Shown piece after piece: positions 3,173-44,371 of a DNA stretch of 44,371 nucleotides. The stretch spans positions 64,001-108,371 of IMG/VR virus record IMGVR_UViG_3300049617_000275. One strand, 5' to 3'. This stretch comes from a virus. The position numbers and the translations under genes were made by a program. The notes under the pieces were generated by a model. That model had not been told where the DNA came from. It worked only from the letters and a program-made list of their open reading frames with translations, and made no database searches. Position 1 is the first letter of the stretch, and every line of letters starts with the position of its first letter.

Positions 3173-4372
3173 TTACTCCTTTTTCAGACTTTCTACGAGC
3201 ACTCTTTTCCAATCTTTCCCGTCTAACCTTGCAAACAATACTCCCGGCTCTACTACCGACTGAGATTTAAGAGCTTCCCGAGCATATATCCTTCTGAGTT
3301 CTCTGTTCTGCCCAAATCCTTCTCCGCCGTGGGTTCTGTAGAACCATTCCACAAATCTCTCTTTGGATTCAAGCTCCTGCCGAAGATACAGAGCAAGTTC
3401 GGCAGTTGCGTCCTGTACTTCCTCCGGCAGGAGCTTTATCCAAAAAGAATCCCCTTCGGTTCCTTCTATACTATCATAGAACAGGATATTGTCCAGCACA
3501 AACTCTTTCCTTTTCTCCGGCGTGTTGTAGGAATCAAGGAAGCGGTTGAGTGCCAAATACCACGTAGTCTTGAACTTAAGACGGTAACAGTCCTTGGAGG
3601 AGTATTCGAAAGTTTGGAGAGGGGGCTGAGTAGATTTAGGAAATACTGCAACAAACCCTTCTGTGTTCGATAACTTTTGGGATTCTTTACACAGGAAAGA
3701 TATGCTGTAATCGAAGCTCCGCGGGTGTTTCACCTCCAAAAGCTCTGCAAAGTACTCCAGCATCTCCGGAGTGTAGAATATATCCCCCTCGGCAGCGGAA
3801 CGAATTCCTAAGAGGTAGAGCCCATTCTCTTTGTCCGTGCATCTCATCATAGGATCTTCCGAAATGCGGATCTCGAAACAATACGTATATCCTTCTGCGG
3901 CAGCAAGGTCCAATTTCTCCGGAGGAAGATATTCCCGCGCCTTGTCTATATATATGTTCGTAAACGAGCACTTTGTTGTATAAAGCCACTCCCCGTCTAC
4001 ATTGTTGATACTCAACAAAGATCCATCTATCTTCTCGTACACGACCGGATGAGTATTCCGTTCCTGTTTTACTCTCTTTTCGTAAGCCTCCAGCAAAGCA
4101 GGCTTGTTTTCTTCAACTTCATTGAAGTTAAAGAACTTAGGGAAAGGATTGCATACGCACTCTCCGTCGGACAGTCTATATACGTGACCCCGCGCAGAGT
4201 TAAGAAGAAAGCTGTCCCACTCTGTCTTCTTCCAAAACACTTCTTGGGCGTAGCAAACAACAATATATCTGCCGCAAGGAGAGATACGGGTTTTAACCTT
4301 TCCTTCTGATTCATAGTTATTTATCTTCTGTATGTTTTCTGGAAGAACACCGGCGGTGTTTGTATCTATCAT
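3173..4372 (-). CDS. RNA ligase, T4 Rnl1-like
   Basis: 399 aa, close to T4 RNA ligase 1 (374 aa). Nucleotidyltransferase motif I is EKIDGSLLS with the expected AMP-accepting lysine at residue 114. FEIRISE (motif III/IIIa-like), EGFVAVFP (motif IV) and LKFKTTWYL (motif V, KxK-like) follow in order. Such enzymes join 5'-phosphate and 3'-OH RNA ends using ATP. T4 Rnl1 reseals host tRNA cut by the PrrC anticodon nuclease. The gene lies in a run of overlapping genes with a metallophosphoesterase and a second, unrelated RNA ligase, suggesting an RNA-repair module; no Pnkp-type end-healing enzyme is seen in the window. Confidence 0.88.
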   Translation of the reverse strand: MIDTNTAGVLPENIQKINNYESEGKVKTRISPCGRYIVVCYAQEVFWKKTEWDSFLLNSARGHVYRLSDGECVCNPFPKFFNFNEVEENKPALLEAYEKRVKQERNTHPVVYEKIDGSLLSINNVDGEWLYTTKCSFTNIYIDKAREYLPPEKLDLAAAEGYTYCFEIRISEDPMMRCTDKENGLYLLGIRSAAEGDIFYTPEMLEYFAELLEVKHPRSFDYSISFLCKESQKLSNTEGFVAVFPKSTQPPLQTFEYSSKDCYRLKFKTTWYLALNRFLDSYNTPEKRKEFVLDNILFYDSIEGTEGDSFWIKLLPEEVQDATAELALYLRQELESKERFVEWFYRTHGGEGFGQNRELRRIYAREALKSQSVVEPGVLFARLDGKDWKRVLVESLKKE

Positions 4373-4668
4373 TCCTCACTCCGTCTATTTTTTGTACTTA
4401 ATAGCCCGTCGCACATACCATTGTATATACCGAAAAACCTGCTCCGGGGCTCTATGGACACCATGCAGTTGTCGGTAGCTCCTGTGCTCCATCCTGCCTT
4501 GTGAAGTTCTTTTACAATTTTCTTTCGGAGAACAGGGTCGGGCACCGTCCTGTAAGTTCCTCCGGAGTTTATAACTTTACTCCACTCCTCTAGTTCTTTG
4601 GAGATAAGAGCATCTCTTTTAAATCGTCTTCCATTATCCTCTATCTCCTTGTTCTGGACCACAGGCAT
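4369..4668 (-). CDS. Hypothetical protein, 99 aa
   Basis: Unrecognised charged protein. Its stop overlaps the ATG of the RNA ligase as ATGA, indicating translational coupling. The start at 4668 overlaps the preceding gene by 35 nt and has a poor ribosome site, so the N-terminus is uncertain. No motif seen. Confidence 0.6.
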   Translation of the reverse strand: MPVVQNKEIEDNGRRFKRDALISKELEEWSKVINSGGTYRTVPDPVLRKKIVKELHKAGWSTGATDNCMVSIEPRSRFFGIYNGMCDGLLSTKNRRSEE

Positions 4669-5005
4669 TCAGGAGATTTACAAACTCCGGCGAGCTTCCC
4701 CAATATTTGCAATAGGCTCTCTGCGGACGCATTCCTCTTTTTCTACACATGAAAAGGTCTTCCCAAATAGGCCATTCTGCTTTCATGAACTTACAATCTT
4801 CCTTTGTCTGATTGATCAGAGGAATATCTTCGAAATCGACATCCACGGAGTCTGCTGCCGCCCAATAAAATAAATCGTTGGCGTTCAGAGTGCACATAAT
4901 TTCTCTTGTCTTCGGGTCTATAAAGAAAGAGCACCGGAAACCTCCGTCGCCGTCTTCAAAGATCTCCATAAGTTGATAGACTTCTTCAAAGGTACTCAAC
5001 GCCAC
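4634..5005 (-). CDS. Hypothetical protein, about 123 aa
   Basis: Unrecognised. GTG at 5005 is chosen because AGGAG sits 8 nt upstream, giving a 10-nt overlap with the phosphoesterase gene; TTG at 4999 is an alternative. Asp/Glu-rich in the middle, with a Cys near CRKRG and a C-terminal YWGSSPE segment encoded by a 23-bp stretch identical to one in the helicase gene at 711-733. Confidence 0.65.
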   Translation of the reverse strand: MALSTFEEVYQLMEIFEDGDGGFRCSFFIDPKTREIMCTLNANDLFYWAAADSVDVDFEDIPLINQTKEDCKFMKAEWPIWEDLFMCRKRGMRPQRAYCKYWGSSPEFVNLLNACGPEQGDRG

Positions 5006-5652
5006 TGCAAATTCTCCTGTATAAGTTTGTAAACCTCCGCGCCGGTGTAAGGAGACATATTGCCTGACCCGTCTATTCCTACATCTATGCATAATCTTCC
5101 ATGCTCTGTCCAAATATTTCGTTCCGGAGGTCTGTGTCCGTGCCCACAAAGAAGAACATCTTCGATGGAGGGTTTTGGGCGGTGCTCTAGGAAGCGTAGC
5201 TCATGTGGGTCTATTCCTTCAAGGACCGGCGGGGCATAGGGAAAGTGACACATTTTTACAATTACGTCTCCCAGTTTTGCAATAACCTGTTCATAAAACA
5301 TGACCTTGCAGAAAACCGATCCCTCTTCTCCGTAGATACTCTGAATCTCTTTTTGGATTTTCTCTCTCTTGCTGCGTTTAAAGAATTTATCGTGGTTTCC
5401 TCCGAGCCAAATAAAGTTTCTGAACACAAGCTGCGGTAGAAACTCGAATACTGCTGCGCCGGAGAGGGAGAAATCTCCGAGAAAGAATACATCTGTCTGC
5501 GGGGAACTCTTCGCATTGAAATTATCTACAAGAGCTTTGTTCATCTCTTCTACTGTGTCAAAAGGACGGCTACAGTAAGAAATAATATTCCTATGCCCCA
5601 GATGAAAATCACTCGAAAACAGCACAGAGTCTAGGTTTTCGATTTCTAACAT
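4996..5652 (-). CDS. Calcineurin-like metallophosphoesterase
   Basis: 218 aa from ATG 5652 (AGGAGG 5-6 nt upstream). All hallmark metal-binding blocks are present in order: SDFHLGH (DxH, residues 15-17), GDFSLSG, GGNHD, CHFPYAP and CGHGH. Such enzymes use two metal ions to hydrolyse phosphomonoesters or phosphodiesters. Lying between two RNA ligase genes, it may process RNA ends (for example cyclic phosphate or 3'-phosphate removal) before ligation; that is inference from position. Overlaps both neighbours by a few bases. Confidence 0.88.
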   Translation of the reverse strand: MLEIENLDSVLFSSDFHLGHRNIISYCSRPFDTVEEMNKALVDNFNAKSSPQTDVFFLGDFSLSGAAVFEFLPQLVFRNFIWLGGNHDKFFKRSKREKIQKEIQSIYGEEGSVFCKVMFYEQVIAKLGDVIVKMCHFPYAPPVLEGIDPHELRFLEHRPKPSIEDVLLCGHGHRPPERNIWTEHGRLCIDVGIDGSGNMSPYTGAEVYKLIQENLQWR

Positions 5653-5918
5653 AAGTCCTCCTGTTCTACAAACATACCGCATGATGCATGTACATCTTCT
5701 CCTACTCTCGGAACTATCTTACATTTAAACCCCCAACCCTGTATACACTCTTGGATATGTTTTACCTCTCTCTCCGACAGCTCAAAAGACAAAGAGTTAG
5801 GAGAGTTGTAGCGGATCCATAGATCCGGTTCTTCCTCTTTGGAATCTCCGCGATAACCCTCCACAAGTTTCTTGTGCTCCCGGAGCCTCTGTTCTATTTC
5901 TTCTAGGTAGCTCAGCAT
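5646..5918 (-). CDS. Hypothetical protein, 90 aa
   Basis: Unrecognised. The N-terminal third is a predicted charged helix (YLEEIEQRLREHKKL); the C-terminal half has three Cys. ATG at 5918 overlaps the ligase stop (TGATG), and its stop overlaps the phosphoesterase start, so it is co-translated with the RNA-repair-like genes. Confidence 0.65.
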   Translation of the reverse strand: MLSYLEEIEQRLREHKKLVEGYRGDSKEEEPDLWIRYNSPNSLSFELSEREVKHIQECIQGWGFKCKIVPRVGEDVHASCGMFVEQEDLC

Positions 5919-7009
5919 CAGTGAAACTCCGTGTTGCCCTTTTGAAGGAGATATTCTTTGTTGATAGCCCGGAGTATCTTACGGGGAAGAAAAGGAGTTG
6001 ACTCCTCTCCGGAGGACCGGAGAACAATTCCCTCTTTTATGGGTTGGTCTCCTAGAGCGGAAGGGCCTTGTCGGAGTTTCTCTATAAGCTCCGCAGAGAA
6101 CTTTACGTTGTCCGCAAGGCAAGGAACTGTCTCTATACTCCTCTCTTTACATATATCAAAGAACTCCCGCGGGGTCAGATACTTTCCGTTTTTCTTTATA
6201 TCAAAAGCAAGAAATGTGGGAACAGAGAATCCGTAAGTATAGTTCTTCTGAATGCCTGGTCCTACGATCTCTCCTGCAAGAATCTCTCCCGGCAAGAGTT
6301 TATCTGCAAGTTTTTGCCGGGTAAACGTATCCCCGTATAGATTGCCGGTGTTTTCTACGTGACAGTTACGGGACGATGTCACAATCTCGTATCGGGTATA
6401 GATACCTATCTTCTGTAAGATACCCCAAAATAAATTGGTCTCTCTCCGCGGAACCTTTGCTAGAAGAGCATTACAACCGTGGAGCTTTTCTGAGACGTTT
6501 ACAAGATCTCCCTCGGAGAATACATTCGGATGTTTTTCGATGTGTTCCAGATCGCAAAACTTGCCCACTAAGGGGTGATGCTTGACCTGTTTCATTCCTT
6601 TCCAGAACTCCGGCGCCGGAGGCTCATACTTGGAGATCCCTAGTATAGCTGTTACATCGTCTCCGGCTCTCTTTCCTGCAAGATCCGGGTAAAAAGCAAG
6701 AAGTTCTGGATCTATGGCAATGACCATACCTTGACTGTAAACTCCGCGAATCTTCGCGGTTTTGACCCTGCTCTTCGAGAGAGTTACTTTGCTTCCCGGA
6801 GGAAAGAGGATGGTTTCTAGTTTATCCGGAAGAACGGAGTCTATAGGAATGTAAATACACTCTCCGCCGACTCCGAATCTATGTAAGCCTGTCGGAGTTT
6901 TGGAGGTTATGCAGTGCCACCCATCTACCTGTACGATGGATAGCCTATCTGCATTGGGATGGTCGACCGCGGAGGCAATACGGGATATCTTTACACTGAG
7001 TTCACTCAA
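5918..7009 (-). CDS. RNA ligase, DRB0094 (Rnl5) family
   Basis: 363 aa. The N-terminal ~110 residues match the OB-like domain of this family (a HPNADRL segment, then VDGW, then IPIDSVLP). The nucleotidyltransferase domain carries motif I EKLHGCN with the adenylated Lys at about residue 175, then GEIVG and FLAFDIK (motif IIIa region) and KEGIVLR (motif IV). Deinococcus DraRnl of this family seals 3'-OH/5'-phosphate nicks with ATP. TTG at 7009 is taken as start: AAGGAGAG lies 5 nt upstream and it overlaps the previous TGA as TTGA. A longer in-frame version would run back into the neighbour. Two RNA ligases of different families so close together is unusual. Confidence 0.87.
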   Translation of the reverse strand: MSELSVKISRIASAVDHPNADRLSIVQVDGWHCITSKTPTGLHRFGVGGECIYIPIDSVLPDKLETILFPPGSKVTLSKSRVKTAKIRGVYSQGMVIAIDPELLAFYPDLAGKRAGDDVTAILGISKYEPPAPEFWKGMKQVKHHPLVGKFCDLEHIEKHPNVFSEGDLVNVSEKLHGCNALLAKVPRRETNLFWGILQKIGIYTRYEIVTSSRNCHVENTGNLYGDTFTRQKLADKLLPGEILAGEIVGPGIQKNYTYGFSVPTFLAFDIKKNGKYLTPREFFDICKERSIETVPCLADNVKFSAELIEKLRQGPSALGDQPIKEGIVLRSSGEESTPFLPRKILRAINKEYLLQKGNTEFH

Positions 7010-9041: not shown

Positions 9042-9128
9042 TGAATAGTGGGATTCAAACCCACGCAGCTACTTAAATTCCACCTTCGCATTAGCAAATG
9101 CGACACCTTTGACTCAGCCACCTATCCA
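9042..9128 (-). tRNA. tRNA-Ser-like gene (anticodon GCU), aberrant
   Basis: Minus-strand cloverleaf in normal order: acceptor TGGATAG pairs with CTATTCA (7 bp, one G-U), T-loop TTTGAAT closed by TGGG/CCCA, and a long variable region (about 22 nt) as in class II tRNA-Ser. The anticodon stem TCGCA/TGCGA closes an 8-nt loop reading TTTGCTAA, one base longer than the canonical 7; GCU follows a proper U33 and precedes AA. The T-stem has only 4 bp, the D-arm lacks the usual GG, and no CCA is encoded. Could be a divergent functional tRNA or a decaying one. Confidence 0.6.
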
Positions 9129-11922: not shown

Positions 11923-12195
11923 TCAGTTCTTCTTGCTCCGGGCGGCTTCTTTCTTTGTGTAGAAAAGTTCAACTGCTCTGTCTATAACCGTCGCAAGCCC
12001 TACTTTGTCCCACAGATCCTCGTTCTCTAAGTCAAATACCTTATCGGATCGTAAGAAGCACTGCTCCCCTACAACGGGAAGAGACTGGGAAAGGTGACTG
12101 CGAAGATCAAAGGGTTTTTCGTGTACTCCGGCTTCCGTAAGTGCAAGCGCGGCAGAGGTAAGGATTGTTTTTGTATCGGGTTTTTGTTTTCTCAA
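11923..12195 (-). CDS. Hypothetical protein, 90 aa, TTG start
   Basis: TTG at 12195 overlaps the TGA of the upstream phosphoesterase (TTGA), with GGAG 6 nt before it. Basic ends and helical middle; unrecognised. Confidence 0.6.
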   Translation of the reverse strand: MRKQKPDTKTILTSAALALTEAGVHEKPFDLRSHLSQSLPVVGEQCFLRSDKVFDLENEDLWDKVGLATVIDRAVELFYTKKEAARSKKN

Positions 12196-12944
12196 TTTGT
12201 TCTCCGTCCGGCTTCAATATCGAAACAGGTAATAGGGTTTATAGCCTTGTATCCTTCAGTGCATATTGCCACATTGTAACACTGCATCTCTGGACGGTCA
12301 ACCCCCTCGGGAAGTTCTTCGCCATAGGCGGGAAAGAAGACAGTGTTTTGGTGTCCTTGTGTATGCGTATGTCCGGTTATAAGTAGTCGAGGTTTGATTA
12401 TCCCTTTGTCTAACACCGCCCGAAGCCCTGGATCTCCTACATGATTTGTTTCTCCCGGACGCACATATGAGTCGGGAATGAGATCCAATATTCCTTTTGC
12501 TGGGCCATGGGAAAGAAGGATGTCCATATCTCTCCATTGCCTGGACTTAGAAGTCTCTGTCCACCACTTCTCTTCTGTACCTCGGGGGATTTGAAAAGCC
12601 CATCCTCTTCCAAAAGCAGGCGTCCAAGGCACTCCGGCAATCTTCAGCCCATCTATCCACATAATTTGGTTTACGAGAAAATCGACTCCGGCATCTAACA
12701 GCTGTTTACGACAAAACTGCGTCTCATTCTCCATATAGATGCAGTGATTTCCCGGAATCAAAACTACATTCTTAAATTGAGAACGGATACGTCGGAGTTG
12801 ATCTAAAAACTCTGCGAATTCTAAAGCTCTTCCTCCAGAAAGACTATCTCCAGCGATGAACAAAAAATCTGCTTCTACATTTCTTAATAGTCTTTGAAGG
12901 GTAATCTGAAGATGGGTATCAGAAATAGCAATACATGATTTCAA
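12192..12944 (-). CDS. Calcineurin-like metallophosphoesterase (second)
   Basis: 250 aa. Metal-site blocks: SDTH (residues 8-11), AGDSLSGG, PGNHC (Cys where Asp or Glu is usual), LSHGPAKG and TGHTHTQGH. TTG start at 12944, 2 nt after the stop of a 27-aa gene whose last codons supply GGAG. A different subgroup from the enzymes at 4996 and 30450. Substrate unknown; could be nucleic acid ends or a nucleotide. Confidence 0.85.
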   Translation of the reverse strand: MKSCIAISDTHLQITLQRLLRNVEADFLFIAGDSLSGGRALEFAEFLDQLRRIRSQFKNVVLIPGNHCIYMENETQFCRKQLLDAGVDFLVNQIMWIDGLKIAGVPWTPAFGRGWAFQIPRGTEEKWWTETSKSRQWRDMDILLSHGPAKGILDLIPDSYVRPGETNHVGDPGLRAVLDKGIIKPRLLITGHTHTQGHQNTVFFPAYGEELPEGVDRPEMQCYNVAICTEGYKAINPITCFDIEAGRRTN

Positions 12945-14612: not shown

Positions 14613-14902
14613 TTCTCTACCCCTAACTTTATTGGATACTCCACCAGAAACTCGCAGAATTCCAGATACTCTTTATTGGGAGTAAAGGGGGCAATGAAGT
14701 ATTCGGGACCGTAACAGCACTTCTCCGCGAGATGCCTGTAAGAGAATATCCCCTGTAATTCCCAAGTGCTATCTATATGTCTTCCACAAACCCACATCTC
14801 ACAGGTGGGTGGAGTTGTAGATGCCACGAGGGAAAGAGTAATCCTTTCCTGCTCTTTCTTGGATATTCCCACTTCCTTCACTCCTAGCACGGGCGAGTTC
14901 AT
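14609..14902 (-). CDS. Hypothetical protein, 97 aa
   Basis: Unrecognised. ATGA overlap with the GroES-like gene upstream and GTGA overlap with RuvC downstream. Contains CEMWVCG, and aromatic sequence towards the C-terminus (YFIAPFTPNKEYLEFCEFL). Confidence 0.6.
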   Translation of the reverse strand: MNSPVLGVKEVGISKKEQERITLSLVASTTPPTCEMWVCGRHIDSTWELQGIFSYRHLAEKCCYGPEYFIAPFTPNKEYLEFCEFLVEYPIKLGVEK

Positions 14903-15585
14903 TCTCTTACCACCTTACAGAGGACTTTATCCGTATCTATTACAAGGAACTTCTTGGTTCCTACAGTCACGGGAGTTCCTTCGTATCGGAGGAAATGTAC
15001 TCTGTCTCCGGGCTCCAGATCTGTATCGGGAATATATTCTCCGGTCTCTTTACAAAGAACTCCGGCGCCGACTTGAACTACTGTGCCTTCCGTAGGCTTA
15101 TCTGATCCAATGCTCTCCGGCAGGAGTATGCCTCCGGAGGAGACCTTTGGAGGTTCTACCGTCTCCAACACTACTCTGTTACCCAGCGGAGTTAAGAACT
15201 CTTCTGAGATGTGAACAATACAGAGAATGTCTTCCTCCCGGCAGCGTCCTACGGACGCAAGATCTGTTCTGTCCAGAGTCTCCTCGTCAAACAATACCAA
15301 CTCCACAAGATCGTTTTCCTGGACTTGGGAAGGTTTGTAGATATGTTCTGTTTTGAAGTGGGGGACAGGGCAGTATTCCCCGTCTTTGCAGTGTACTGCT
15401 CTTTTCTCTGTACGGAGAAAATGTCCTTTGTGTACGGCCTTTACTTTACACCGGCGGTTCTTGACATACTGCGTGTCAGGGAGTATGATCAAACTGTCTT
15501 CGGAAAGACGTGACCCCGCCGGGAGTCTCTCTACAATAATGTAGGGAGCAACGGGGCGCATATGTGGAATGTTTATCGAGGGCAT
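14899..15585 (-). CDS. Tandem GroES-like co-chaperonin
   Basis: 228 aa, more than twice a normal GroES (about 97 aa). The C-terminal half is a clear GroES: PLGNRVVLETVEPPKVSSGGILLP, a mobile-loop region, GTVVQVGAG, PGDRVHFLRYEG and FLVIDTDKVL. The N-terminal half repeats the pattern more loosely (RPVAPYIIVERLPAGSRLSEDSLIILP, then KVKAVHKG), so it looks like two domains in tandem. Phage GroES homologues (T4 Gp31) alter host GroEL so it can fold capsid protein. ATG at 15585 lies inside the end of the glycosyltransferase gene. Confidence 0.83.
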   Translation of the reverse strand: MPSINIPHMRPVAPYIIVERLPAGSRLSEDSLIILPDTQYVKNRRCKVKAVHKGHFLRTEKRAVHCKDGEYCPVPHFKTEHIYKPSQVQENDLVELVLFDEETLDRTDLASVGRCREEDILCIVHISEEFLTPLGNRVVLETVEPPKVSSGGILLPESIGSDKPTEGTVVQVGAGVLCKETGEYIPDTDLEPGDRVHFLRYEGTPVTVGTKKFLVIDTDKVLCKVVRE

Positions 15586-17066
15586 GTTTCTGTTTCCTTG
15601 TTTTCGAACGCGAACTGTTTCAATCTGTTCTTTGAGTCGCACAGATCGCAAAATACTTTGTAGAGTTTATGTATGTGGAATCTTTCCAGCCTATTCTCCG
15701 ACACATATTTGAAAGCCGCTGCTCCCAACTCCGCCCGGAGAGAATGATCTTGAATAAGGCGAGCAAGTTGATCCACGAACTCCTGCTGTCCGGTGTACAT
15801 AAGACAGTTTTCTCCGTCTTTCCAATGCCTTGCATATGTCTGGAAACGCGGTAACACCGCCGGAATTCCCCACGCTCCGTACTCTACGGCCTTAATGTCG
15901 CTCTTTGCCATGTTAAAAAGGGTAGGAGCAAGCGGGGCAATTCCTATGTCTAGGTTCCGAAGATTGAAAAAGTAGAGGTCGTATCCTGAATCGGGAATGT
16001 GATAGAGTCTCCGCGGGAGCTGACGTTTGTCGGAATCTGGAATCCAAGTTACCTTCTTCTCTCCTGTTTGTTCGTCTACATAGTGCGCAGGCTTGTATCC
16101 GGCATATTGTAAATGCCAATGCACAAACCTGTCCCAGCCTAAATACACAAACCAACAGTTCTGGGCAAAAGTCTCTATGATCTTCCCCCACCCGGACATT
16201 ATGCTGTTGAAATCCTGTCCCCAGTGTGTTACTGTAGAAGAGTAGCCTACACGAGGAAGAGGAATGATCTTGGAAGTATCCCACTCCCCTGATGCAGAGC
16301 CTGGGGGAAAAGAATATGCAGGAAGGTTTACAAGTCCTTGGTTTATAGGAATGTCCACCATCCCTGTCTGAGGATTTATAAAAGCTTGCTCCGGATCAAA
16401 TGCTCGAAAGGGGGGAACTTCCGAAATGTTGTTTTCCGACACAAAAATGTTCTTGTTGTAGGGGTAGAGGGTGCGTTTCAGCTCCTCCGTCGAGACTACA
16501 ACAAGATCCATCATCGAGATGATCTCTTTGTAGTTTTGAAGGCCGAGCTGTCTCACTTCTTCTATCTTCTGTTTGTTTTCTTCTATTGCCCGGACATACT
16601 CAGCATATTGCACAGGATCGTTCTGGGCTTCTCCGGCGAGCTTTACAAGTTTCTCATGTTCGAAGTGGCATGATTCTGTAATATTCTTGGGAATCATAGA
16701 AAGATAGGCAGGATTGTCCGGTTCAATGTGGAGGTAGTCATCATCCGTCTCGAATACAAGGGGAATATTGAGATAGTCACACGCCGACCGGAGTTGTCCT
16801 ACAATATTCCTAAAATAGCAGCGTTGGATAATTACAATATCATATTTGCTAAGCTCTGTTACCAGTAGGTGAAAAGGATCTGCTCCAGGAGCAGAGGGTA
16901 GCCACGCCGCCTCCTTATAGGTTACCCCTAAACTCCTCATTGCATTAAATTTAGTTAATAAACGGAAGTAGCGGCATCCTCCAAGATCGCCGCAGAATGC
17001 CGCCACTCTTAGGTTTCGGGACTTTTCTTCTTGTAATTCTGGGGTAGTAATCAATCTCTCTACCAA
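15573..17066 (-). CDS. Glycosyltransferase family 1/4-like (GT-B)
   Basis: About 497 aa. N-terminal RVAAFCGDLGGCRYFRL and VFETDDDYL, middle KIIETFAQNCWFVYLGW, C-terminal DIGIAPLAPTLFNMAKSDIKAVEYGAWGIPAV, where AKSxIKxxEYGAxGIP is the GT-B donor-site signature. TTG at 17066 is preferred: GGAAGGG lies 5 nt upstream, while the first in-frame TTG (17096) lies before the expected transcript start of the promoter at 17100-17128. First gene of the leftward operon that continues with GroES and RuvC. Confidence 0.8.
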   Translation of the reverse strand: MVERLITTPELQEEKSRNLRVAAFCGDLGGCRYFRLLTKFNAMRSLGVTYKEAAWLPSAPGADPFHLLVTELSKYDIVIIQRCYFRNIVGQLRSACDYLNIPLVFETDDDYLHIEPDNPAYLSMIPKNITESCHFEHEKLVKLAGEAQNDPVQYAEYVRAIEENKQKIEEVRQLGLQNYKEIISMMDLVVVSTEELKRTLYPYNKNIFVSENNISEVPPFRAFDPEQAFINPQTGMVDIPINQGLVNLPAYSFPPGSASGEWDTSKIIPLPRVGYSSTVTHWGQDFNSIMSGWGKIIETFAQNCWFVYLGWDRFVHWHLQYAGYKPAHYVDEQTGEKKVTWIPDSDKRQLPRRLYHIPDSGYDLYFFNLRNLDIGIAPLAPTLFNMAKSDIKAVEYGAWGIPAVLPRFQTYARHWKDGENCLMYTGQQEFVDQLARLIQDHSLRAELGAAAFKYVSENRLERFHIHKLYKVFCDLCDSKNRLKQFAFENKETETCPR

Positions 17067-21159: not shown

Positions 21160-21298
21160 TAAGGGTAACGGCGTTTAATCCAAAGAATCAGATCTGTGCC
21201 AAGCTATTTTTCCGTTAAACTACCTTTCGAATTGGCCGAAAGGGCGAGAATCGAACTCGCATCTTCAGGAATTTTCTTTGGAGCTGGAGATACCCTTA
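21160..21298 (-). tRNA. Circularly permuted tRNA-like unit 2
   Basis: On the minus strand the 3' part comes first: T-arm GCGAG-TTCGATT-CTCGC (21260-21244), then acceptor CCTTTCG (21243-21237), then GCCA and ATT. The matching 5' part follows: acceptor CGAAAGG (21229-21223), TA, and D-arm GTTT...AAAT with AACGG loop (21220-21206). The acceptor halves pair perfectly (7 bp) but in inverted order. The flanks are also complementary: TTCTTTGGA with TCCAAAGAA (21179-21187 / 21274-21282) and TACCCTTA with TAAGGGTA (21160-21167 / 21291-21298). This would bring the outer ends together where an anticodon arm should be. I cannot identify the anticodon. Confidence 0.65.
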
Positions 21299-21346
21299 TC
21301 TGTGTTCTTGAAACTAGAGGAGATAGATTGAACTTTGTTTGAACTC

Positions 21347-21419
21347 CGGGCTGCCTTTACCGTTTGGCTACCGAGCCCTAAATGACTCGGGTGGGATTCG
21401 AACCGCACAAATTTACCCG
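21347..21419 (-). tRNA. Circularly permuted tRNA-like unit 1
   Basis: Minus strand, inverted order: CGGGT (21419-21415), a short variable stretch, T-arm with loop TTCGAAT closed by CCCAC (21408-21391, one bulged base), acceptor CCGAGTC (21390-21384), A-TTTAG linker, then acceptor GGCTCGG (21377-21371), TA, D-arm GCC-AAACGGTAAA-GGC (21368-21353), A26, and GCCCG (21351-21347). GGCTCGG pairs with CCGAGTC (7 bp, one G-U), and GCCCG with CGGGT as the anticodon stem (5 bp). A full cloverleaf forms only if the outer ends are joined. The anticodon loop is not obvious; U33 is not found at the expected place. Confidence 0.68.
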
Positions 21420-21480
21420 TTATTCTTCAACTTCTGCTTTTAGCTTCAGCTTATCCTCTTCGGATACTTTGTTTACGGGA

Positions 21481-22230
21481 TTACTCCGCGAGGAGGAACT
21501 TGAATAAGTCCTCTCCTATTTTTCTGTTTGGAACCTCTGCGAGGTTCGCTCTTTCTCGAGCACTCTTTACCGCATCGGACAGGGCGTTTGCTTTTTCCAA
21601 GAGTGCAGCTTTCCTATCTGCTGACATAGCTCCGGACAGCTTTACTGTCTCCCAGTGCCCTGCAATTACATCCCGTGTAATCACCTGGGCTTGTCCCGGA
21701 TGTTCCGGAGTAGGGGAGATAAGTACAAGACTTTCCTGAACCTTGTTCGTGCGGTGAGTCCGAATAGGAGCTGTTCGGTGGACAGCAGTATTACCCTGTT
21801 CTACATTCCAATCCTCCGCCGGGTCTAGGACAGGAAGTTTGGAAACAAACGTTCTCCAGTTATTCATCTCTTTCTCTAAAGAAAGAAGAGTGGTTGCCGG
21901 GAGGTCTGTTACTACACATGTCCCGTCTGCAAGGATGATGTCGGCTCGGGCTACGCAGTTTCCTGCGTCCTTGGCTGTCTCTACGTCTATTGTCTCTACG
22001 GTAGCCTTTACAGCGCTACGCAGCACATCTGCAACCGTAGCCTGGACTTTCCTGTTTTCAGGAGGAAATTGCTCCCCGTCGTCTGACAGAGGAAGATACT
22101 TGCGGCTCAAGCCGTTAAAAAGATCTGGCTTTTGGGTGAGGTGGTGGAGTTTGGAAATCTCTTCGTTGTTACGGGACTTTACTCCCTTTTCCATGGCAAC
22201 TACTTCGTGCAATCTACGGGTTTTTGACAT
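21481..22230 (-). CDS. Conserved phage protein (DUF7873-like)
   Basis: 249 aa from ATG 22230 (CCGGAG 7 nt upstream). Matches a conserved family I know from many phages: MSKTRRLHEVVAMEKGVKSR, an LTQKPDLFNGLSRKY segment, a KLPVLDPAEDWN segment, APIRTHRTNKV, and a helical C-terminus. The DUF number is from memory. Function not established. After its stop the +1 frame stays open for about 20 codons into the tRNA-like segment (ending LKLKAEVEE). Confidence 0.75.
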   Translation of the reverse strand: MSKTRRLHEVVAMEKGVKSRNNEEISKLHHLTQKPDLFNGLSRKYLPLSDDGEQFPPENRKVQATVADVLRSAVKATVETIDVETAKDAGNCVARADIILADGTCVVTDLPATTLLSLEKEMNNWRTFVSKLPVLDPAEDWNVEQGNTAVHRTAPIRTHRTNKVQESLVLISPTPEHPGQAQVITRDVIAGHWETVKLSGAMSADRKAALLEKANALSDAVKSARERANLAEVPNRKIGEDLFKFLLAE

Positions 22231-29984: not shown

Positions 29985-30457
29985 ATACTCAATATGTTGG
30001 ATATTTTGTCTTTGACTCCGGCGGCACTTACAGTTATGTTCTGTGAAGCAGGAATACGGACAGCGTGGTCATATAAGGCACGTACTCTCTGTACTGTCTC
30101 CGCCGCCTCACTTCCTTCTGTTGAAGTTTCCGTCTTTTTTCTGGGAGTGTGGAACTCCGGGTCCAGAGAGAAAGTGAAGCGAGTTCCGGGGCGTTGGTTT
30201 TCTACTCTTGTATATTCCGCGTCAATACCTACCGTTGCAAACTCTTCTCGAATGCCGGAGTTTATCTCTTCGTTCCAATTATTTATCCTGTAGACATTCT
30301 TCCCAGAACGGAGATACTCTGAGGCACGTTGGACGTGATGTTCTATGGAATCTACAAGTTTGTCTCTGGAGGTTTTCTGTCTTTTCAAGATTATCGAGCG
30401 CAGCTCCTCCGCCGTAACTATCCCTTCCGCCCTGTTTGAATCCACCAACTTATGCAT
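29981..30457 (-). CDS. Hypothetical protein, 158 aa
   Basis: ATG 30457 with AAGGAG 2-3 nt upstream, overlapping the phosphoesterase stop. Helical N-terminus (EELRSIILKRQKTS), Thr/Ser/Glu-rich middle. Unrecognised. Confidence 0.6.
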   Translation of the reverse strand: MHKLVDSNRAEGIVTAEELRSIILKRQKTSRDKLVDSIEHHVQRASEYLRSGKNVYRINNWNEEINSGIREEFATVGIDAEYTRVENQRPGTRFTFSLDPEFHTPRKKTETSTEGSEAAETVQRVRALYDHAVRIPASQNITVSAAGVKDKISNILSM

Positions 30458-31223
30458 ACTCCTTCTTGATTTTCTTCATTCCTATATACCGGAAACTATC
30501 CACCTGTCCGTCTTCTAAATCTTCTAGAAGTACCACACCCCGCCACCAATATTTGTTCTCTCTTTCTCCGGCGTAGTCCGTATCAGACTCGAAATAACAC
30601 CCCGTTATCATGGAAAACTTCTCCTTGCCCGTGGCGTCGCATTTGAAAGCCATATCTCTTATGTGAGAATGTCCAGACATCGTCGACATAAAGGATTTGG
30701 ATAGTGTAAGTCGGGCTTGATTCTCTCCGCCGATTGCCTTGTTCATTCTCCCCGAGGTTATGTAGTGTTGAAAGACCGTATTCTCGATAATAAGGGGTTG
30801 AAGGTAGGGTATAGCCTTCCATCCGTAATCTCCGAATCTACAGTCCTTAGCAGTACCTATTGTGCCCTGGAGGATAGGGTTGTTCTCCACTTCTCTATCC
30901 GGGCGGTTGTCGTGATTTCCAAGAGTTATGGATAGGTCAGGAATGTACTTCTTCTTTCTCCCGGAGTTATACTTATCTATCTCTTCCTGAAAGACCGCAA
31001 GAGCTTCGTGTCCTGCGTCCAAATCGGCTTGGTAGCGAAGTCCTTCGTAAGCCCTCTTTCCTTTGATCTGAAAGCAGAGAGATTCAAAATTAAACCAATC
31101 CCCCGCGCATACCGTCTTGTCTGGCTTCAGATCACATATAAGTCGGGCTAACCACCTGAATCTATCTGAGCTTTCCCTGGGATCTGCATGGGGGTCAGGG
31201 ACGTGAAGAAGACTTATTGCCAA
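30450..31223 (-). CDS. Calcineurin-like metallophosphoesterase (third)
   Basis: 257 aa. Metal motifs PDPHAD (DxH at 10-12), CAGDWFN, TLGNHDNR and MSGHSHIRD. Subgroup similar to phage 'phosphoesterase' genes near DNA polymerase. TTG start at 31223 has no strong ribosome site. Possibly a DNA or RNA end-processing enzyme. Confidence 0.83.
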   Translation of the reverse strand: MAISLLHVPDPHADPRESSDRFRWLARLICDLKPDKTVCAGDWFNFESLCFQIKGKRAYEGLRYQADLDAGHEALAVFQEEIDKYNSGRKKKYIPDLSITLGNHDNRPDREVENNPILQGTIGTAKDCRFGDYGWKAIPYLQPLIIENTVFQHYITSGRMNKAIGGENQARLTLSKSFMSTMSGHSHIRDMAFKCDATGKEKFSMITGCYFESDTDYAGERENKYWWRGVVLLEDLEDGQVDSFRYIGMKKIKKEYA

Positions 31224-34803: not shown

Positions 34804-34932
34804 GCCCTCGTTCCTAAAGAAAATGTTAAATCCTGGGCTGTGCTCCGGTGTATAGGAGTGTAAAGACTGTAAATATGTGTAGCGCAAGGGATTTAGAGAT
34901 TAAAATATCTGGAAAATTTAGATTTTTATGGG

Positions 34933-35016
34933 TAAAGATAATACCTATCCGAATTTTTCTTTTGGTATTCTGTCGGGAAGAAAGATAGAAAATATTTTGG
35001 ATAGGTATTATCTTTA
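34933..35016. repeat. Perfect 18-bp inverted repeat in AT-rich divergent region
   Basis: Arms taaagataatacctatcc (34933-34950) and ggataggtattatcttta (34999-35016), spacer 48 bp. Partial copies of the motif TTTTTCTTTTGG(N)AT recur at about 34953 and 35033. It lies between leftward and rightward transcription units, so it may be a regulator site, a promoter for the phage sigma factor, or a replication origin. The rest of 34804-35240 is AT-rich and noncoding. Confidence 0.7.
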
Positions 35017-35240
35017 CGGAGAAAGAAATATATTTTTCTTTTGGATAGATATTTTCAAGTAAGTATCTCTATACACTTCACTATGTCTCCTTTAGCGTGC
35101 ACGCGCACGCGTAATAAGAAAGCAAGATTAAAAAATTCTTACGGAAATAAAGCTTTTCTAACTTACGTGGTAGAGTATAAGAGTCGAGATTTTCTACAGC
35201 ATAATTTACAGAAGCAATCCCAAAAGGAAAATAAAATAAA

Positions 35241-40795: not shown

Positions 40796-41323
40796 ATGGA
40801 ACTGAATAAAGAAAGAGAAGCATTCCTTATAGAGAACATTGCTTTTCGAAGGAATTCTCTTGCACAGGTTCGAGAAGACTACAACCGCATGTTCGATCAA
40901 TCTGTCTCCGGAGAGCAGATTTGGCAGTTTGTACAGACAAACAAGGCAAAGATAGAGGCATACGCCCGCCGGGAGCTAAATAACGTCCGAAAGGAACCTC
41001 TTGCCCACTGTAGGAACAGACTCTCTATCCTATACGAGATGGTACAGAGTGCCATGGTTCCTAAGGTGATCAAATCCTATCCTATTCACGCCGAAGGCAA
41101 AGAAGTAACTTACGAAACAGAGACAGCTCCCGATTACTCCGCCGTAGATAGGTTAATCCGCACAGCTCAGAACGAAGAATTCTTCAACAAAAAAGTGTTC
41201 CTGGAAATCAAGAAGATGGATCTCCTTCCTGAGGACGTTCAAGGAAAGTTGGATTCTGGATTCGAGGTTATCACGATCAATGACGGACTCAAGACTTTAG
41301 AGGACAGGAATGCCCAACAATAA
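40796..41323 (+). CDS. terS: Terminase small subunit
   Basis: 175 aa. Placed directly before the large terminase gene (14-nt overlap), helical, with LNNVRKEPLAHCRNRLSILYEMV and SAVDRLIRTAQNEEFFN, the pattern of phage small terminase proteins that bind DNA as an oligomeric ring. No distinct helix-turn-helix is obvious, so the call rests mainly on position and length. Confidence 0.68.
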   Translation: MELNKEREAFLIENIAFRRNSLAQVREDYNRMFDQSVSGEQIWQFVQTNKAKIEAYARRELNNVRKEPLAHCRNRLSILYEMVQSAMVPKVIKSYPIHAEGKEVTYETETAPDYSAVDRLIRTAQNEEFFNKKVFLEIKKMDLLPEDVQGKLDSGFEVITINDGLKTLEDRNAQQ

Positions 41324-44300
41324 GAAATTCCCGCCGGAGGAAGCAAAAAGGATATGGAAGGATTTACGGGAGAAGGGATTACAAATATGGCCTACTCCAA
41401 GGAATGGCATCCCTTACGGACCTACTCCTAAACAATGGGATGGGTTTTGTGTTTCTCATAAACATGACATCTCCGTGGATCTTTTTTACGGTGGCGGGAG
41501 AGGGAGTAAATGCCATAAAAAAGATTCTGAAGTACTTATGTATGATGGGACTATTAAAAAGGTTCAAGACGTAGAGGTCGGAGACCTTCTCATGGGTCCA
41601 GATTCGCAACCTAGAGAAGTGTTGTCTACCTCTAGAGGATACGGACCTATGTATGAGATCCGCCCCACTAAAAAAAATTACGAAAGTCTATTTGTAAACG
41701 GAGACCATATTCTTAGCTTGAAGTGTTGCATGATGAGTTCAAGAAAGGCTCCAAGAAAAAAAGGAGAGATCAGAACTGACCCTCGGTATAAACATGAATT
41801 TGTCAACATCTCTGTAGATGACTATTTTAATTGGGCGAATCATAAGAAAAAAGCCTATACTCTATGGAAGCCGAAGTGTATAGATTTTCAGTCTAATGGC
41901 AGCCAAGATTTAACTATAGATCCATATTTTTTAGGAGTATGGCTAGGGGACGGTCACTCCCGAATCGCGGGCATTACTAATATCGATCCTGAAATTATAG
42001 ATTATGTAAAAGAATATGCAAATCTTTTAGGATTAGAAGTCAGACAAACAGGAATATCATATTTTCTTCATAGTAGAAAGAGAAAGGCAGAAACAAACTT
42101 GACTGTGCGCCTTGTATCTGAGGATCTTCAAGGAAATAAACATATACCCCATAAATACCTGACAGCTTCCCGAGAGGTCCGTCTTCAGATATTAGCAGGA
42201 CTTATAGATACAGATGGCAGTATAGACGGAAAAGCCAAATCTTATTATAAGATTACCCAAAAAAATGATCGCCTGGCTCAGGATATAGTATTTCTTGCCC
42301 GTTCTCTGGGGTTTGGAGTTAATTTAAAAAAAATAACTGCTTCGTGCATGTATAAGGGATCTAAGAGAGAAGGCACCTATAACTCCATATCCATTTCCGG
42401 GGATATGTGGCATATTCCGGTAAAAATACCGAGAAAGAAAATAGCACAAGAAAACAGAAAATACAACCCTCTCCATTATGGATTCGAAATCATTCCCATA
42501 GGAGAGGAAGATTACTATGGCTTTGAAGTTTCCGGCGACCATCTGTATGTTATGGGGAACTTCTTTGTAACCCATAACTCGGCTCTAGCAGAGGCTATTA
42601 CGCTAAAGGCTACGTTTGAAACTCCTAGAATAGATATTATGGTGGGCTGTGAAAAGTTCAATCACCTTGAACGTACAACATTGAACGATTATAAAAAGTT
42701 TTTTTCTGTATTTTCAGATTGGGATTCTCCTCTTTTGGGGAAAGGATTTAACGAACGTAAAAAGAATTTCTCTCTTTACAATGGCTCTACGTACTGGTGT
42801 ATGCACTTCAAGGAGTTTGAGATACTCCGCGGAGCTAACCTTGCTTTAGCCCACATAGAGGAGGGGTCTCTAATCCAGGACGGAATATTTGTACTAGGAG
42901 AAATATTCCGTCGTATGTCTTCTACTCTTGTAGAACAGAAGAGAGTAATAGTTACTACCAACCCCGAAGAAGTCCATGGATGGGTTTATGAGTACTTTGA
43001 ATTGGAAAAATTCAAGCCTGGCTACTCCGGCGATCCGCCGCGCAGATGTGAGCCTATTGAAAGATATCCGAATCATCAATTTTGGGAAGAACGAGGATGG
43101 GATCTGTCTCAAAATTCTGGATTTTATGTAGGAAAACCTTGTAATTGTCAACTCTGTCAAGAATGCCTCAACAACTCCCGCGGAGAATTCGAGTATGTAG
43201 GCAATAACTGTCCTAACTGCAATGTTCCTAAAGGGAACAAATGCCCAGGTAATCAGTATTTCACCCGAGTTTTCTTCTTCGATCCCAAGGACAACCCTCA
43301 CTTAGATTCTTCCTACCGCCAGACCCAGAAACTTCTGGCCTCTTCCGAAGAAGAGTTTCGTCTCTATACGGAAGGGGAAGTAATGGAGTTGAAGTCTCAG
43401 TTCTGCTACCCCAAGTTCAACCATTCCAATAACGTTCTAAAAGAAGACGAACTCTTAGATTACTCCCGCCCGATGTTTTGGAACTTCGACTTCAATATTT
43501 CCTACCAATGCTCCGTTCTACTCCAAGAATTCCCTGATGCCTCCGGCGAGATTACGGCTCTTATGTTTGATGAACAGATTCTTGCCGAATCTGGCCCAGA
43601 TAAAGCTGCGTTGGATTGGCTTAAGCGCTATCACGATTTCGACGAGATTGTCTATATTGTCTTTGACCCCGCCGCTTTCAACCGTTCTGTGACCAACGAT
43701 GACGGAGGAATTCGGGTGAAGATGATCAAGGAAAGGCTGGAAAACCCAGAGAAGTACAGATTCGCGGAGACAGATGTGGAAAAGAAGAACCCGCTGTTTC
43801 CTGAATGTAAGCCCAAGAGAGTGATTCTCCTGACTATCAAGGAAGAAGGAAAGACAAAAGTAGAGGTCTCCGGGAGAGTTGATTCAGTCAACGAAGCCCT
43901 GGACAACGATAAAGGCTTTCACCGCATCAAGATCAATCCTAAGTGCAAGTGGACGATCCATAGCCTACAGAACGTCCGGTGGAAGATAGGAGAGAAATCC
44001 ATAACTCCCACAATAGATACTTCCGTAGACAAGATGGCTGCTAAGGCTATCAACAAGTCTCGTGTTCGCACTCTTACACATCCTACGGATGCTTTGGGAT
44101 ACTACATATACAAACGTTTCCCTCTTTTGGAAATCAAGAGGAAAGAAATGTATGCTTACCTCCCCGGCGAGAAGTTGTTGAAAACCTCCGCTTGTGGAAC
44201 CAAAGTAGAAGATCACCCCGATATCCCTCCTCAACCCAAGAAATGCCCTTGTTGCGGGAAAGAGTTCGCCGGAGGAGAGAAGTATTGTGATATTGATCTA

Positions 44301-44371
44301 AATCGCCTCGTTCTTCGAGACACAAAGAAGATCGAAGAGGAGTTCGCTGCCGATTACAAACACCCTCTTCT
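41310..44371 (+). CDS. terL: Terminase large subunit with intein (3' end cut by window)
   Basis: Open to the right edge. N-extein residues 1-67 end in GGGRGSK, the Walker A of phage terminases, cut by an intein; the C-extein resumes SALAEA. LALAHIEEGS (Walker B region), an inserted Cys cluster (CNCQLCQEC and CPNC), the nuclease acidic strand WNFDFNISYQC, later LTHPTDALGYY (nuclease Asp) and a C-terminal zinc ribbon CPCCGKEF...YC. Cuts and packages DNA using ATP. Splicing is needed to restore the ATP-binding loop. Confidence 0.92.
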   Translation, partial: MPNNKKFPPEEAKRIWKDLREKGLQIWPTPRNGIPYGPTPKQWDGFCVSHKHDISVDLFYGGGRGSKCHKKDSEVLMYDGTIKKVQDVEVGDLLMGPDSQPREVLSTSRGYGPMYEIRPTKKNYESLFVNGDHILSLKCCMMSSRKAPRKKGEIRTDPRYKHEFVNISVDDYFNWANHKKKAYTLWKPKCIDFQSNGSQDLTIDPYFLGVWLGDGHSRIAGITNIDPEIIDYVKEYANLLGLEVRQTGISYFLHSRKRKAETNLTVRLVSEDLQGNKHIPHKYLTASREVRLQILAGLIDTDGSIDGKAKSYYKITQKNDRLAQDIVFLARSLGFGVNLKKITASCMYKGSKREGTYNSISISGDMWHIPVKIPRKKIAQENRKYNPLHYGFEIIPIGEEDYYGFEVSGDHLYVMGNFFVTHNSALAEAITLKATFETPRIDIMVGCEKFNHLERTTLNDYKKFFSVFSDWDSPLLGKGFNERKKNFSLYNGSTYWCMHFKEFEILRGANLALAHIEEGSLIQDGIFVLGEIFRRMSSTLVEQKRVIVTTNPEEVHGWVYEYFELEKFKPGYSGDPPRRCEPIERYPNHQFWEERGWDLSQNSGFYVGKPCNCQLCQECLNNSRGEFEYVGNNCPNCNVPKGNKCPGNQYFTRVFFFDPKDNPHLDSSYRQTQKLLASSEEEFRLYTEGEVMELKSQFCYPKFNHSNNVLKEDELLDYSRPMFWNFDFNISYQCSVLLQEFPDASGEITALMFDEQILAESGPDKAALDWLKRYHDFDEIVYIVFDPAAFNRSVTNDDGGIRVKMIKERLENPEKYRFAETDVEKKNPLFPECKPKRVILLTIKEEGKTKVEVSGRVDSVNEALDNDKGFHRIKINPKCKWTIHSLQNVRWKIGEKSITPTIDTSVDKMAAKAINKSRVRTLTHPTDALGYYIYKRFPLLEIKRKEMYAYLPGEKLLKTSACGTKVEDHPDIPPQPKKCPCCGKEFAGGEKYCDIDLNRLVLRDTKKIEEEFAADYKHPL
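41511..42578 (+). mobile_element. LAGLIDADG intein in the terminase Walker A motif
   Basis: 356 residues beginning Cys1 (CHKKDSEVLMYDG, block A) and ending GNFFVTHN followed by Ser (blocks F and G). A VNGDHIL segment gives the block B histidine. Two endonuclease motifs are present: FLGVWLGDG (residues ~140-148) and LAGLIDTDG (228-236), so it probably still encodes a homing endonuclease. Insertion in the P-loop means the terminase is inactive until splicing. Confidence 0.93.

What the first reader, a model, noticed from the sequence alone, without database searches (positions are those of the whole stretch)
3173..7009. RNA-repair-like block: two unrelated RNA ligases around a phosphoesterase
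An Rnl1-type ligase and a DRB0094-family ligase flank a metallophosphoesterase in overlapping genes. In T4 Rnl1 mends cut tRNA. The window also has permuted and otherwise defective tRNA-like genes, so the ligases could close permuted tRNAs, mend host tRNAs cut by a defence nuclease, or both. The link is inference.
Basis: partly seen in the sequence, partly recalled or inferred. Interest (0 to 1): 0.72.

Follow-up and report, generated by a model that had tools for sequence, protein, structure and literature searches.

The report
Phage RNA ligases, unrelated tRNA-mimic pair
The phage really carries two RNA ligases with a phosphoesterase, an ordinary RNA-repair kit, but the odd 'permuted tRNAs' it was linked to are a separate thing: a pair of tRNA-mimicking RNAs that sit behind an uncharacterised gene (DUF7873) in phages and in many bacteria, and that I found described nowhere.

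Summary
The block is real. 3173-4372 is a divergent Rnl1-type ligase, 4996-5682 a calcineurin-like phosphoesterase, 5918-7009 a DRB0094/Rnl5-type ligase; motifs are intact. Isolated phages have similar sets (44RR2.8t, Cr30, 2L372X). It is best read as phage RNA repair, a known kind.

The proposed link to permuted tRNAs fails. The two units at 21183-21279 and 21330-21427 (minus strand) fold as a T-arm, closed acceptor stem and D-arm on an extended anticodon stem, the order of bacterial Y RNAs. They lie directly behind a DUF7873 gene. Among 80 viral and 80 bacterial DUF7873 loci found by protein alone, 74 and 79 have such a unit within about 1 kb, and 58 and 70 have two. A model built without the window finds both window units (E about 1e-16). 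Units occur without ligases (GodonK, Keelan, Klebsiella KpLz-2_45) and ligases without units (Cr30, 2L372X). No anticodon loop is recognisable. Rfam has no family for the units and no held paper mentions DUF7873.

So the finding splits: an ordinary ligase cassette, and a widespread, apparently undescribed protein-plus-two-RNAs cassette resembling Ro60/Y RNA. This record shows no Ro60, although Ro60 sometimes lies near DUF7873 elsewhere. Functions are inferred.

The parts
3173..4372 (-). Rnl1-type (T4 RnlA/gp63-like) RNA ligase, divergent
   Evidence: PF09511 E=1.1e-15, phrog_562 E=1e-36; TIGR02308 32.7 bits, below its equivalog cut-off of 242; motifs I, IIIa, IV, V intact against Cr30, 2L372X and 44RR
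4369..4668 (-). small ORF of unknown function inside the block
   Evidence: no Pfam or convincing PHROG match; overlaps the Rnl1 gene by 4 nt
4996..5682 (-). calcineurin-like metallophosphoesterase (phrog_547)
   Evidence: metal-site motifs intact and E=2.8e-13 to the phosphoesterase next to Rnl1 in Aeromonas phage 2L372X
5646..5918 (-). small ORF (90 aa) between phosphoesterase and second ligase
   Evidence: weak PHROG match only
5918..7009 (-). Rnl5/DRB0094-type RNA ligase: N-terminal OB domain plus nucleotidyltransferase; TTG start at 7009 overlaps the upstream stop
   Evidence: PF09414 plus PHA02142 OB, TIGR02306 E=6e-37 at 127 bits, cut-off 151, NgrRnl 5cot E=1e-16 over residues 19-331
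21481..22230 (-). DUF7873 (PF25283) gene, the constant upstream neighbour of the permuted units
   Evidence: PF25283 E=6e-83; conserved neighbour in 74/80 viral and 79/80 bacterial loci; AlphaFold pLDDT 93.5, no clear fold match
21330..21427 (-). permuted tRNA-like RNA unit 1: AC 3' strand, T-arm, 3' acceptor, 6-nt loop, 5' acceptor, D-arm, AC 5' strand, with extended basal stem
   Evidence: model R1 built without the window: 45.9 bits, E=8.7e-17; MFE fold shows exactly these helices (z=-2.4)
21183..21279 (-). permuted tRNA-like RNA unit 2, same order, different D-arm (TAGTTTAACGG), conserved TTAAACGCC downstream
   Evidence: R1 45.7 bits, E=1.1e-16; Rfam YrlA 25.6 bits, below gathering 69; T-arm and acceptor stem fold, the whole unit alone not more stable than shuffles

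Best explanation
Two independent things. (a) 3173-7009 is a phage RNA-repair cassette: an Rnl1-type and an Rnl5/DRB0094-type ligase seal 5'-phosphate/3'-OH RNA breaks after end clean-up, for which the phosphoesterase is a candidate, most likely undoing cuts made by host defence or stress RNases. The families are shown; substrate and purpose are inferred. (b) The 'permuted tRNA genes' are not its substrates. They are a tandem pair of tRNA-mimic RNAs made with DUF7873. The RNA keeps the T-arm, D-arm and a closed acceptor stem, has no anticodon loop, and stands on an extended stem as bacterial Y RNAs do. DUF7873 is the candidate protein partner, holding the RNA by the basal stem while the tRNA-like head engages tRNA-binding proteins. 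RNA structure and gene pairing are shown by comparative genomics; binding and function are inferred by analogy with Ro60/YrlA.
For: Block; precedents. Pairing: DUF7873 is the only same-strand gene shared by type-B contigs found purely by RNA pattern (11/12). Protein-only searches give units in 54/80 viral loci by strict descriptor against 1/80 upstream and 2 hits in 400 shuffles. R1 gives 75/80, or 74/80 after removing canonical-tRNA overlaps, 58 with two units. Bacteria: 79/80, 70 with two after the same filter. RNAalifold on 24 loci found by protein recovers T-arm, acceptor and D-arm of both units and a 9-pair basal stem of unit 2, with 33 compensated pairs. Independence from ligases. No anticodon loop: u1 reads GA where a tRNA needs Y32-U33, and in KpLz-2_45 a helix (GTCATCA/TGATGAC) runs through the position.
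Against: Nothing shows expression, binding or activity. The virus record is 108 kb and may be incomplete, so absence of Ro60 or of a kinase is not proof. Some association with repair genes exists: Ro60 within 2.5 kb of DUF7873 in 4/160 loci, an Rnl5 ligase next to DUF7873 in Streptomyces smaragdinus, Ro60 somewhere in 32/50 bacterial DUF7873 genomes, and Rnl1 more often in viral records with Ro60 (5/19 against 1/31, p=0.024). No AAA_33 kinase was found in this record, so the repair set may be incomplete.
Confidence: 0.72

Rival explanations
1. One reading: the ligases circularise or join the permuted units into working tRNAs, as for permuted tRNA genes of red algae and archaea.
For: Both lie in one phage; T-before-D order with paired acceptor strands; some units have NCCA after the 3' acceptor strand (window u2 GCCA; GodonK ACCA and TCCA).
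Against: Units without ligases and ligases without units; ligases not enriched with units; no anticodon loop or U33; NCCA in only 19/116 bacterial units; a continuous basal helix where a splice site would be.
Confidence: 0.06
2. The units are ordinary Y RNAs of Ro60, supplied by the host or by a missing part of this genome, and the ligases with Ro60 form one repair system, as in rsr-yrl-rtcBA operons.
For: Same layout as YrlA; sister type-A units sit with Ro60 (TROVE in 18/32 records with permuted units against 1/18 controls, p=0.0006); Ro60 near DUF7873 in some loci and in 32/50 bacterial genomes.
Against: No TROVE in this record even at E=10 and in 0/10 named DUF7873 phages; in bacteria the constant neighbour is DUF7873, not Ro60; no Rfam YrlA hit at gathering.
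Confidence: 0.22
3. The Rnl1-like protein acts in tail-fibre attachment (T4 gp63 has both roles) and is not part of an RNA-repair set.
For: PHROG annotation 'RNA ligase and tail fiber protein attachment catalyst'; no polynucleotide kinase family AAA_33 in the record.
Against: Ligase motifs intact; lies beside a second ligase and a phosphoesterase, not among tail genes; neighbours of the same kind in Cr30, 2L372X and 44RR.
Confidence: 0.1
4. The units are chance remnants of degraded or tandem tRNA genes.
For: Head-to-tail canonical tRNAs can imitate the pattern, and R1 can score 49 bits on them (L046).
Against: Canonical overlaps removed and 74/80 and 79/80 remain; compensated changes in acceptor and basal stems; fixed place behind DUF7873 in phages and several bacterial phyla.
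Confidence: 0.02

Closest known systems
T4-type phage RNA repair (Rnl1/RnlA with Pnkp); Aeromonas phage 44RR2.8t has an Rnl5-type ligase, rnlA and pseT within about 6 kb
   Same: Rnl1-type ligase near a DRB0094-type ligase in a phage
   Different: 44RR has a polynucleotide kinase and no phosphoesterase in the block; in this record a phosphoesterase but no AAA_33 kinase was found
Caulobacter phage Cr30 and Aeromonas phage 2L372X ligase clusters
   Same: phosphoesterase with Rnl1 (and in Cr30 a PF09414 ligase) within a few kb
   Different: both carry an AAA_33 kinase next to Rnl1; Cr30's PF09414 ligase lacks the OB domain
Rnl5 family (Deinococcus DraRnl/DRB0094, Naegleria NgrRnl)
   Same: OB plus nucleotidyltransferase architecture and motifs, E=1e-16 over nearly the full length
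   Different: below the TIGR02306 equivalog cut-off (127 against 151 bits)
Bacterial Y RNA YrlA (Rfam RF02553) with Ro60/Rsr
   Same: tRNA-like head with T-arm, closed acceptor and D-arm in permuted order on a stem made by the RNA's two ends (PMC8394870)
   Different: conserved partner gene is DUF7873, two units in tandem, no YrlA hit at gathering, Ro60 usually not adjacent
Permuted tRNA genes (Cyanidioschyzon, archaea)
   Same: 3' half before 5' half with paired acceptor strands
   Different: no anticodon loop or anticodon; continuous basal helix

Membership tests
Rnl1 (T4 RnlA-type) ligases | PF09511 domain above its gathering score | tested here: met
   58.5 bits against cut-off 28.3
Rnl1 (T4 RnlA-type) ligases | nucleotidyltransferase motifs with the catalytic lysine | tested here: met
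   EKIDGS, FEIR, EGFV, LKFKT aligned with Cr30, 2L372X and 44RR
Rnl1 (T4 RnlA-type) ligases | T4 RnlA equivalog (TIGR02308 cut-off) | tested here: not met
   32.7 bits against 242: family member, not a T4 RnlA equivalent
Rnl5/DRB0094 ligases | N-terminal OB domain plus PF09414 domain, full-length match to a solved member | tested here: met
Rnl5/DRB0094 ligases | TIGR02306 equivalog cut-off | tested here: not met
   127 bits against 151
T4-type tRNA repair system | polynucleotide 5' kinase and 3' end healing with the ligase | tested here: inconclusive
   phosphoesterase present; no AAA_33 kinase in a possibly incomplete 108-kb record
T4-type tRNA repair system | seals cleaved host tRNA in infection | not testable with these tools
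   needs biochemistry and phage genetics
Bacterial Y RNA (YrlA) | permuted tRNA-like domain on a stem formed by the RNA's ends | tested here: met
   description of YrlA in PMC8394870
Bacterial Y RNA (YrlA) | Rfam RF02553 gathering score | tested here: not met
   25.6 bits against 69; no hit in DUF7873 loci
Bacterial Y RNA (YrlA) | Ro60/Rsr gene present or adjacent | tested here: not met
   no TROVE in this (possibly incomplete) record or in 10 named DUF7873 phages; adjacent in a minority of other loci
Bacterial Y RNA (YrlA) | binds Ro60 | not testable with these tools
   needs binding assays
Permuted tRNA genes | a 7-nt anticodon loop with U33 and anticodon at the joined ends | tested here: not met
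   u1 has GA at the loop start; KpLz-2_45 has a continuous helix there
DUF7873 plus twin tRNA-like RNA cassette | DUF7873 gene followed on the same strand by one or two R1-type units | tested here: met
   window units 21330-21427 and 21183-21279 behind 21481-22230

The most novel reading that the evidence does not exclude
DUF7873 and its tandem permuted tRNA-like RNAs are an undescribed ribonucleoprotein of bacteria and their phages, a counterpart of Ro60/Y RNA built on an unrelated protein, in which two tRNA mimics with different D-arms recruit or sequester tRNA-binding factors, perhaps for RNA quality control or against tRNA-cutting defences.
Probability: 0.5. Interest if true: 0.85.

Novelty: new variant of a known kind. 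Interest (0 to 1): 0.62.

Why it matters
The ligase block alone adds one more phage to a known list. Following its supposed substrates showed that a structured RNA pair, absent from Rfam and unannotated in the phage records examined, accompanies a protein of unknown function (DUF7873) in Actinomycetota, Myxococcota, Planctomycetota, Acidobacteriota, Chloroflexota and phages. If the RNAs bind DUF7873, tRNA mimicry by Y-type RNAs is not tied to Ro60, and the long-open question of what the tRNA-like head of Y RNAs is for can be attacked in a second system with simple genetics, for instance in Streptomyces.

Tried and rejected
A close relative of this phage: single-protein scans with the ligase found none and with DUF7873 one distant contig. 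Reading the units as YrlA: only sub-threshold. Hidden Ro60 in this record: none at E=10. CCA-end processing of the closed acceptor loop as in two-piece tmRNA: NCCA is in only 19/116 bacterial units. DUF7873 by fold: no convincing PDB or viral match; the best VIA hit, 3kdq, has Z 8.8 but rmsd 8.5. R1 score alone as proof: rejected after seeing 49 bits on tandem canonical tRNAs, hence the overlap filter. DUF7873 or the ligases as PADLOC or NCBIfam defence proteins: no. PMC10870794 and PMC4201824 (Y RNA papers) are not held.
Full report
What was claimed. Two unrelated RNA ligases flank a phosphoesterase at 3173-7009, and the ligases might close permuted tRNAs at 21.2-21.4 kb.

The block. Pfam and PHROG matches confirm all three genes. 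The first is an Rnl1-type ligase. The last is a DRB0094/Rnl5-type ligase with its N-terminal OB domain: TIGR02306 E=6e-37 but below the equivalog cut-off, and Naegleria RNA ligase 5cot E=1e-16 over almost the whole length. Motifs of both ligases and of the phosphoesterase are intact. The genes overlap, with three small ORFs of unknown function between them. The set has precedents in isolated phages. 44RR2.8t has an Rnl5-type ligase, rnlA and pseT within about 6 kb. Cr30 has a phosphoesterase, a PF09414 ligase, Rnl1 and a kinase within about 7 kb. 2L372X has phosphoesterase, Rnl1 and kinase adjacent. A review of jumbo phages describes phages with any mixture of ligase families and argues that they mend RNA cut by host effectors (PMC7824862). 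The present block is one more such set, without a detectable AAA_33 kinase in the record. Its likely role is repair of RNA cut by host nucleases; this is inference from the families.

The supposed substrates. On the minus strand 21427-21330 folds, as minimum-energy structure, into T-arm, closed 7-bp acceptor stem, D-arm and an anticodon stem that runs on into a long helix. 21279-21183 has the same order with a different D-arm. This is the layout of bacterial Y RNAs, whose basal stem is made by the two RNA ends and whose head copies D-, T- and acceptor arms (PMC8394870). Rfam's YrlA model gives only 25.6 bits against a gathering score of 69.

Which gene goes with them. A pattern scan of viral contigs returned permuted units of two types after a pairing filter. 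Ro60 (TROVE) occurs in 18 of 32 such records against 1 of 18 tandem-tRNA controls (p=0.0006), whereas Rnl1 (5/32 against 1/18, p=0.40) and PF09414 (7/32 against 3/18, p=0.73) are not enriched. In the type like the window's, 11 of 12 contigs have one shared gene directly upstream, the DUF7873 family, and the window's units also follow a DUF7873 gene, 21481-22230.

Unbiased tests. Searching by DUF7873 protein only, 54 of 80 viral loci have a strictly defined unit within 800 nt downstream, against 1 of 80 upstream and 2 hits in 400 shuffled sequences. A covariance model from 28 units, window excluded, finds the two window units at 45.9 and 45.7 bits (E=8.7e-17 and 1.1e-16); canonical tRNAs of the same genome stay below 20 bits. 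It finds units in 75 of 80 viral loci and 79 of 80 bacterial loci. Because it can score tandem canonical tRNAs (49 bits in one case), hits overlapping ARAGORN tRNAs were removed: 74 and 79 loci remain, with two units in 58 and 70. RNAalifold on 24 actinomycete regions chosen by protein recovers T-arm, acceptor and D-arm of both units and a nine-pair basal stem of unit 2, with 33 pairs showing compensated changes. In the 28-unit alignment, T-arm and acceptor pairing was partly imposed by selection, so one search is the better evidence. The anticodon stem, not used for selection, pairs 5/5 in 73 of 116 bacterial units against 19 of 116 with a partner from another unit. Units also follow DUF7873 in the named phages GodonK, Keelan, NiceHouse, PA-SR01, Racecar, Pam2 and KpLz-2_45, where the annotation shows no RNA gene at those places. 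No held paper mentions DUF7873 and no Rfam family reaches its threshold on the units.

Why they are not tRNAs waiting for a ligase. There is no recognisable anticodon loop: unit 1 has GA where a tRNA needs a pyrimidine and U33, and in KpLz-2_45 a perfect 7-bp helix runs through that place. A CCA end is not conserved. GodonK, Keelan and KpLz-2_45 have units but no Rnl1 or PF09414 ligase above the cut-offs, while Cr30 and 2L372X have the ligases, ordinary tRNAs and no unit.

What remains of a link. Ro60 lies within 2.5 kb of DUF7873 in 4 of 160 loci, and an Rnl5 ligase sits next to DUF7873 in Streptomyces smaragdinus. Ro60 is present somewhere in 32 of 50 bacterial DUF7873 genomes, and Rnl1 is commoner in viral records with Ro60 (5/19 against 1/31, p=0.024, uncorrected). 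A shared theme of RNA quality control is therefore plausible, but the ligases are not part of the cassette.

How the cassette most likely works. By analogy with Ro60/YrlA, DUF7873 would hold the basal stem while the tRNA-like head engages a tRNA-binding partner. Two units with different D-arms suggest two partners or two states. Binding is not shown. The AlphaFold model of DUF7873 is confident (pLDDT 93.5) but has no clear structural relative.

Limits. The record is 108 kb, possibly incomplete. Sequence collections are redundant: 64 distinct first units among the viral loci and 79 among the bacterial ones. The 80-locus lists are the best-scoring relatives, so more distant DUF7873 proteins may behave differently; the strict descriptor found no unit for Rhizobium phage RHph_Y1_11, Microcoleus phage and L011, though R1 gives weaker hits downstream in RHph_Y1_11 and L011 (33.7 and 17.2 bits) and, in the Microcoleus phage, a 30.7-bit hit about 1.8 kb away.

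Noticed in passing
L279 1311-2381 (-), Streptomyces smaragdinus: A full DRB0094-family RNA ligase (TIGR02306, 418 bits) lies divergently next to a DUF7873 gene with its two RNA units.
   Followed up: partly
L034, L037, L047, L064, L113 and others: A second type of permuted unit (TAGCTCA D-arm), often in viral contigs that encode Ro60, also falls below Rfam's YrlA threshold in the loci scanned: likely uncurated phage Y RNAs.
   Followed up: partly
viral records G007, G013, G018, G020, G041: Rnl1-type ligase and Ro60 occur together more often than expected (5/19 against 1/31); in G018 they lie about 2 kb apart.
   Followed up: no
window 41310-44369 (+): A 1020-aa ORF running off the record carries Hint and LAGLIDADG homing-endonuclease domains, probably an intein in a large phage protein.
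   Followed up: no
window 34932-35017 (-): A nearly perfect inverted repeat (GTAAAGATAATACCTATCC and its complement) in a non-coding gap, matched only by chance to a plant microRNA model.
   Followed up: no
window 12192-12944 and 30450-31223 (-): Two more calcineurin-like phosphoesterases in the window, so the one in the block is tied to the ligases only by position.
   Followed up: no
window 9042-9127 (-): A tRNA-Ser(GCU)-like gene with a long variable arm that scores below Rfam's tRNA threshold.
   Followed up: no
window 14899-15651 (-): A Cpn10 domain at the end of a 250-aa frame with a long N-terminal extension.
   Followed up: no
L234, Candidatus Obscuribacterales: Its DUF7873 is the closest relative of the window's (57% identity, others 49% or less), a hint at the phage's host or a past gene transfer.
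   Followed up: partly
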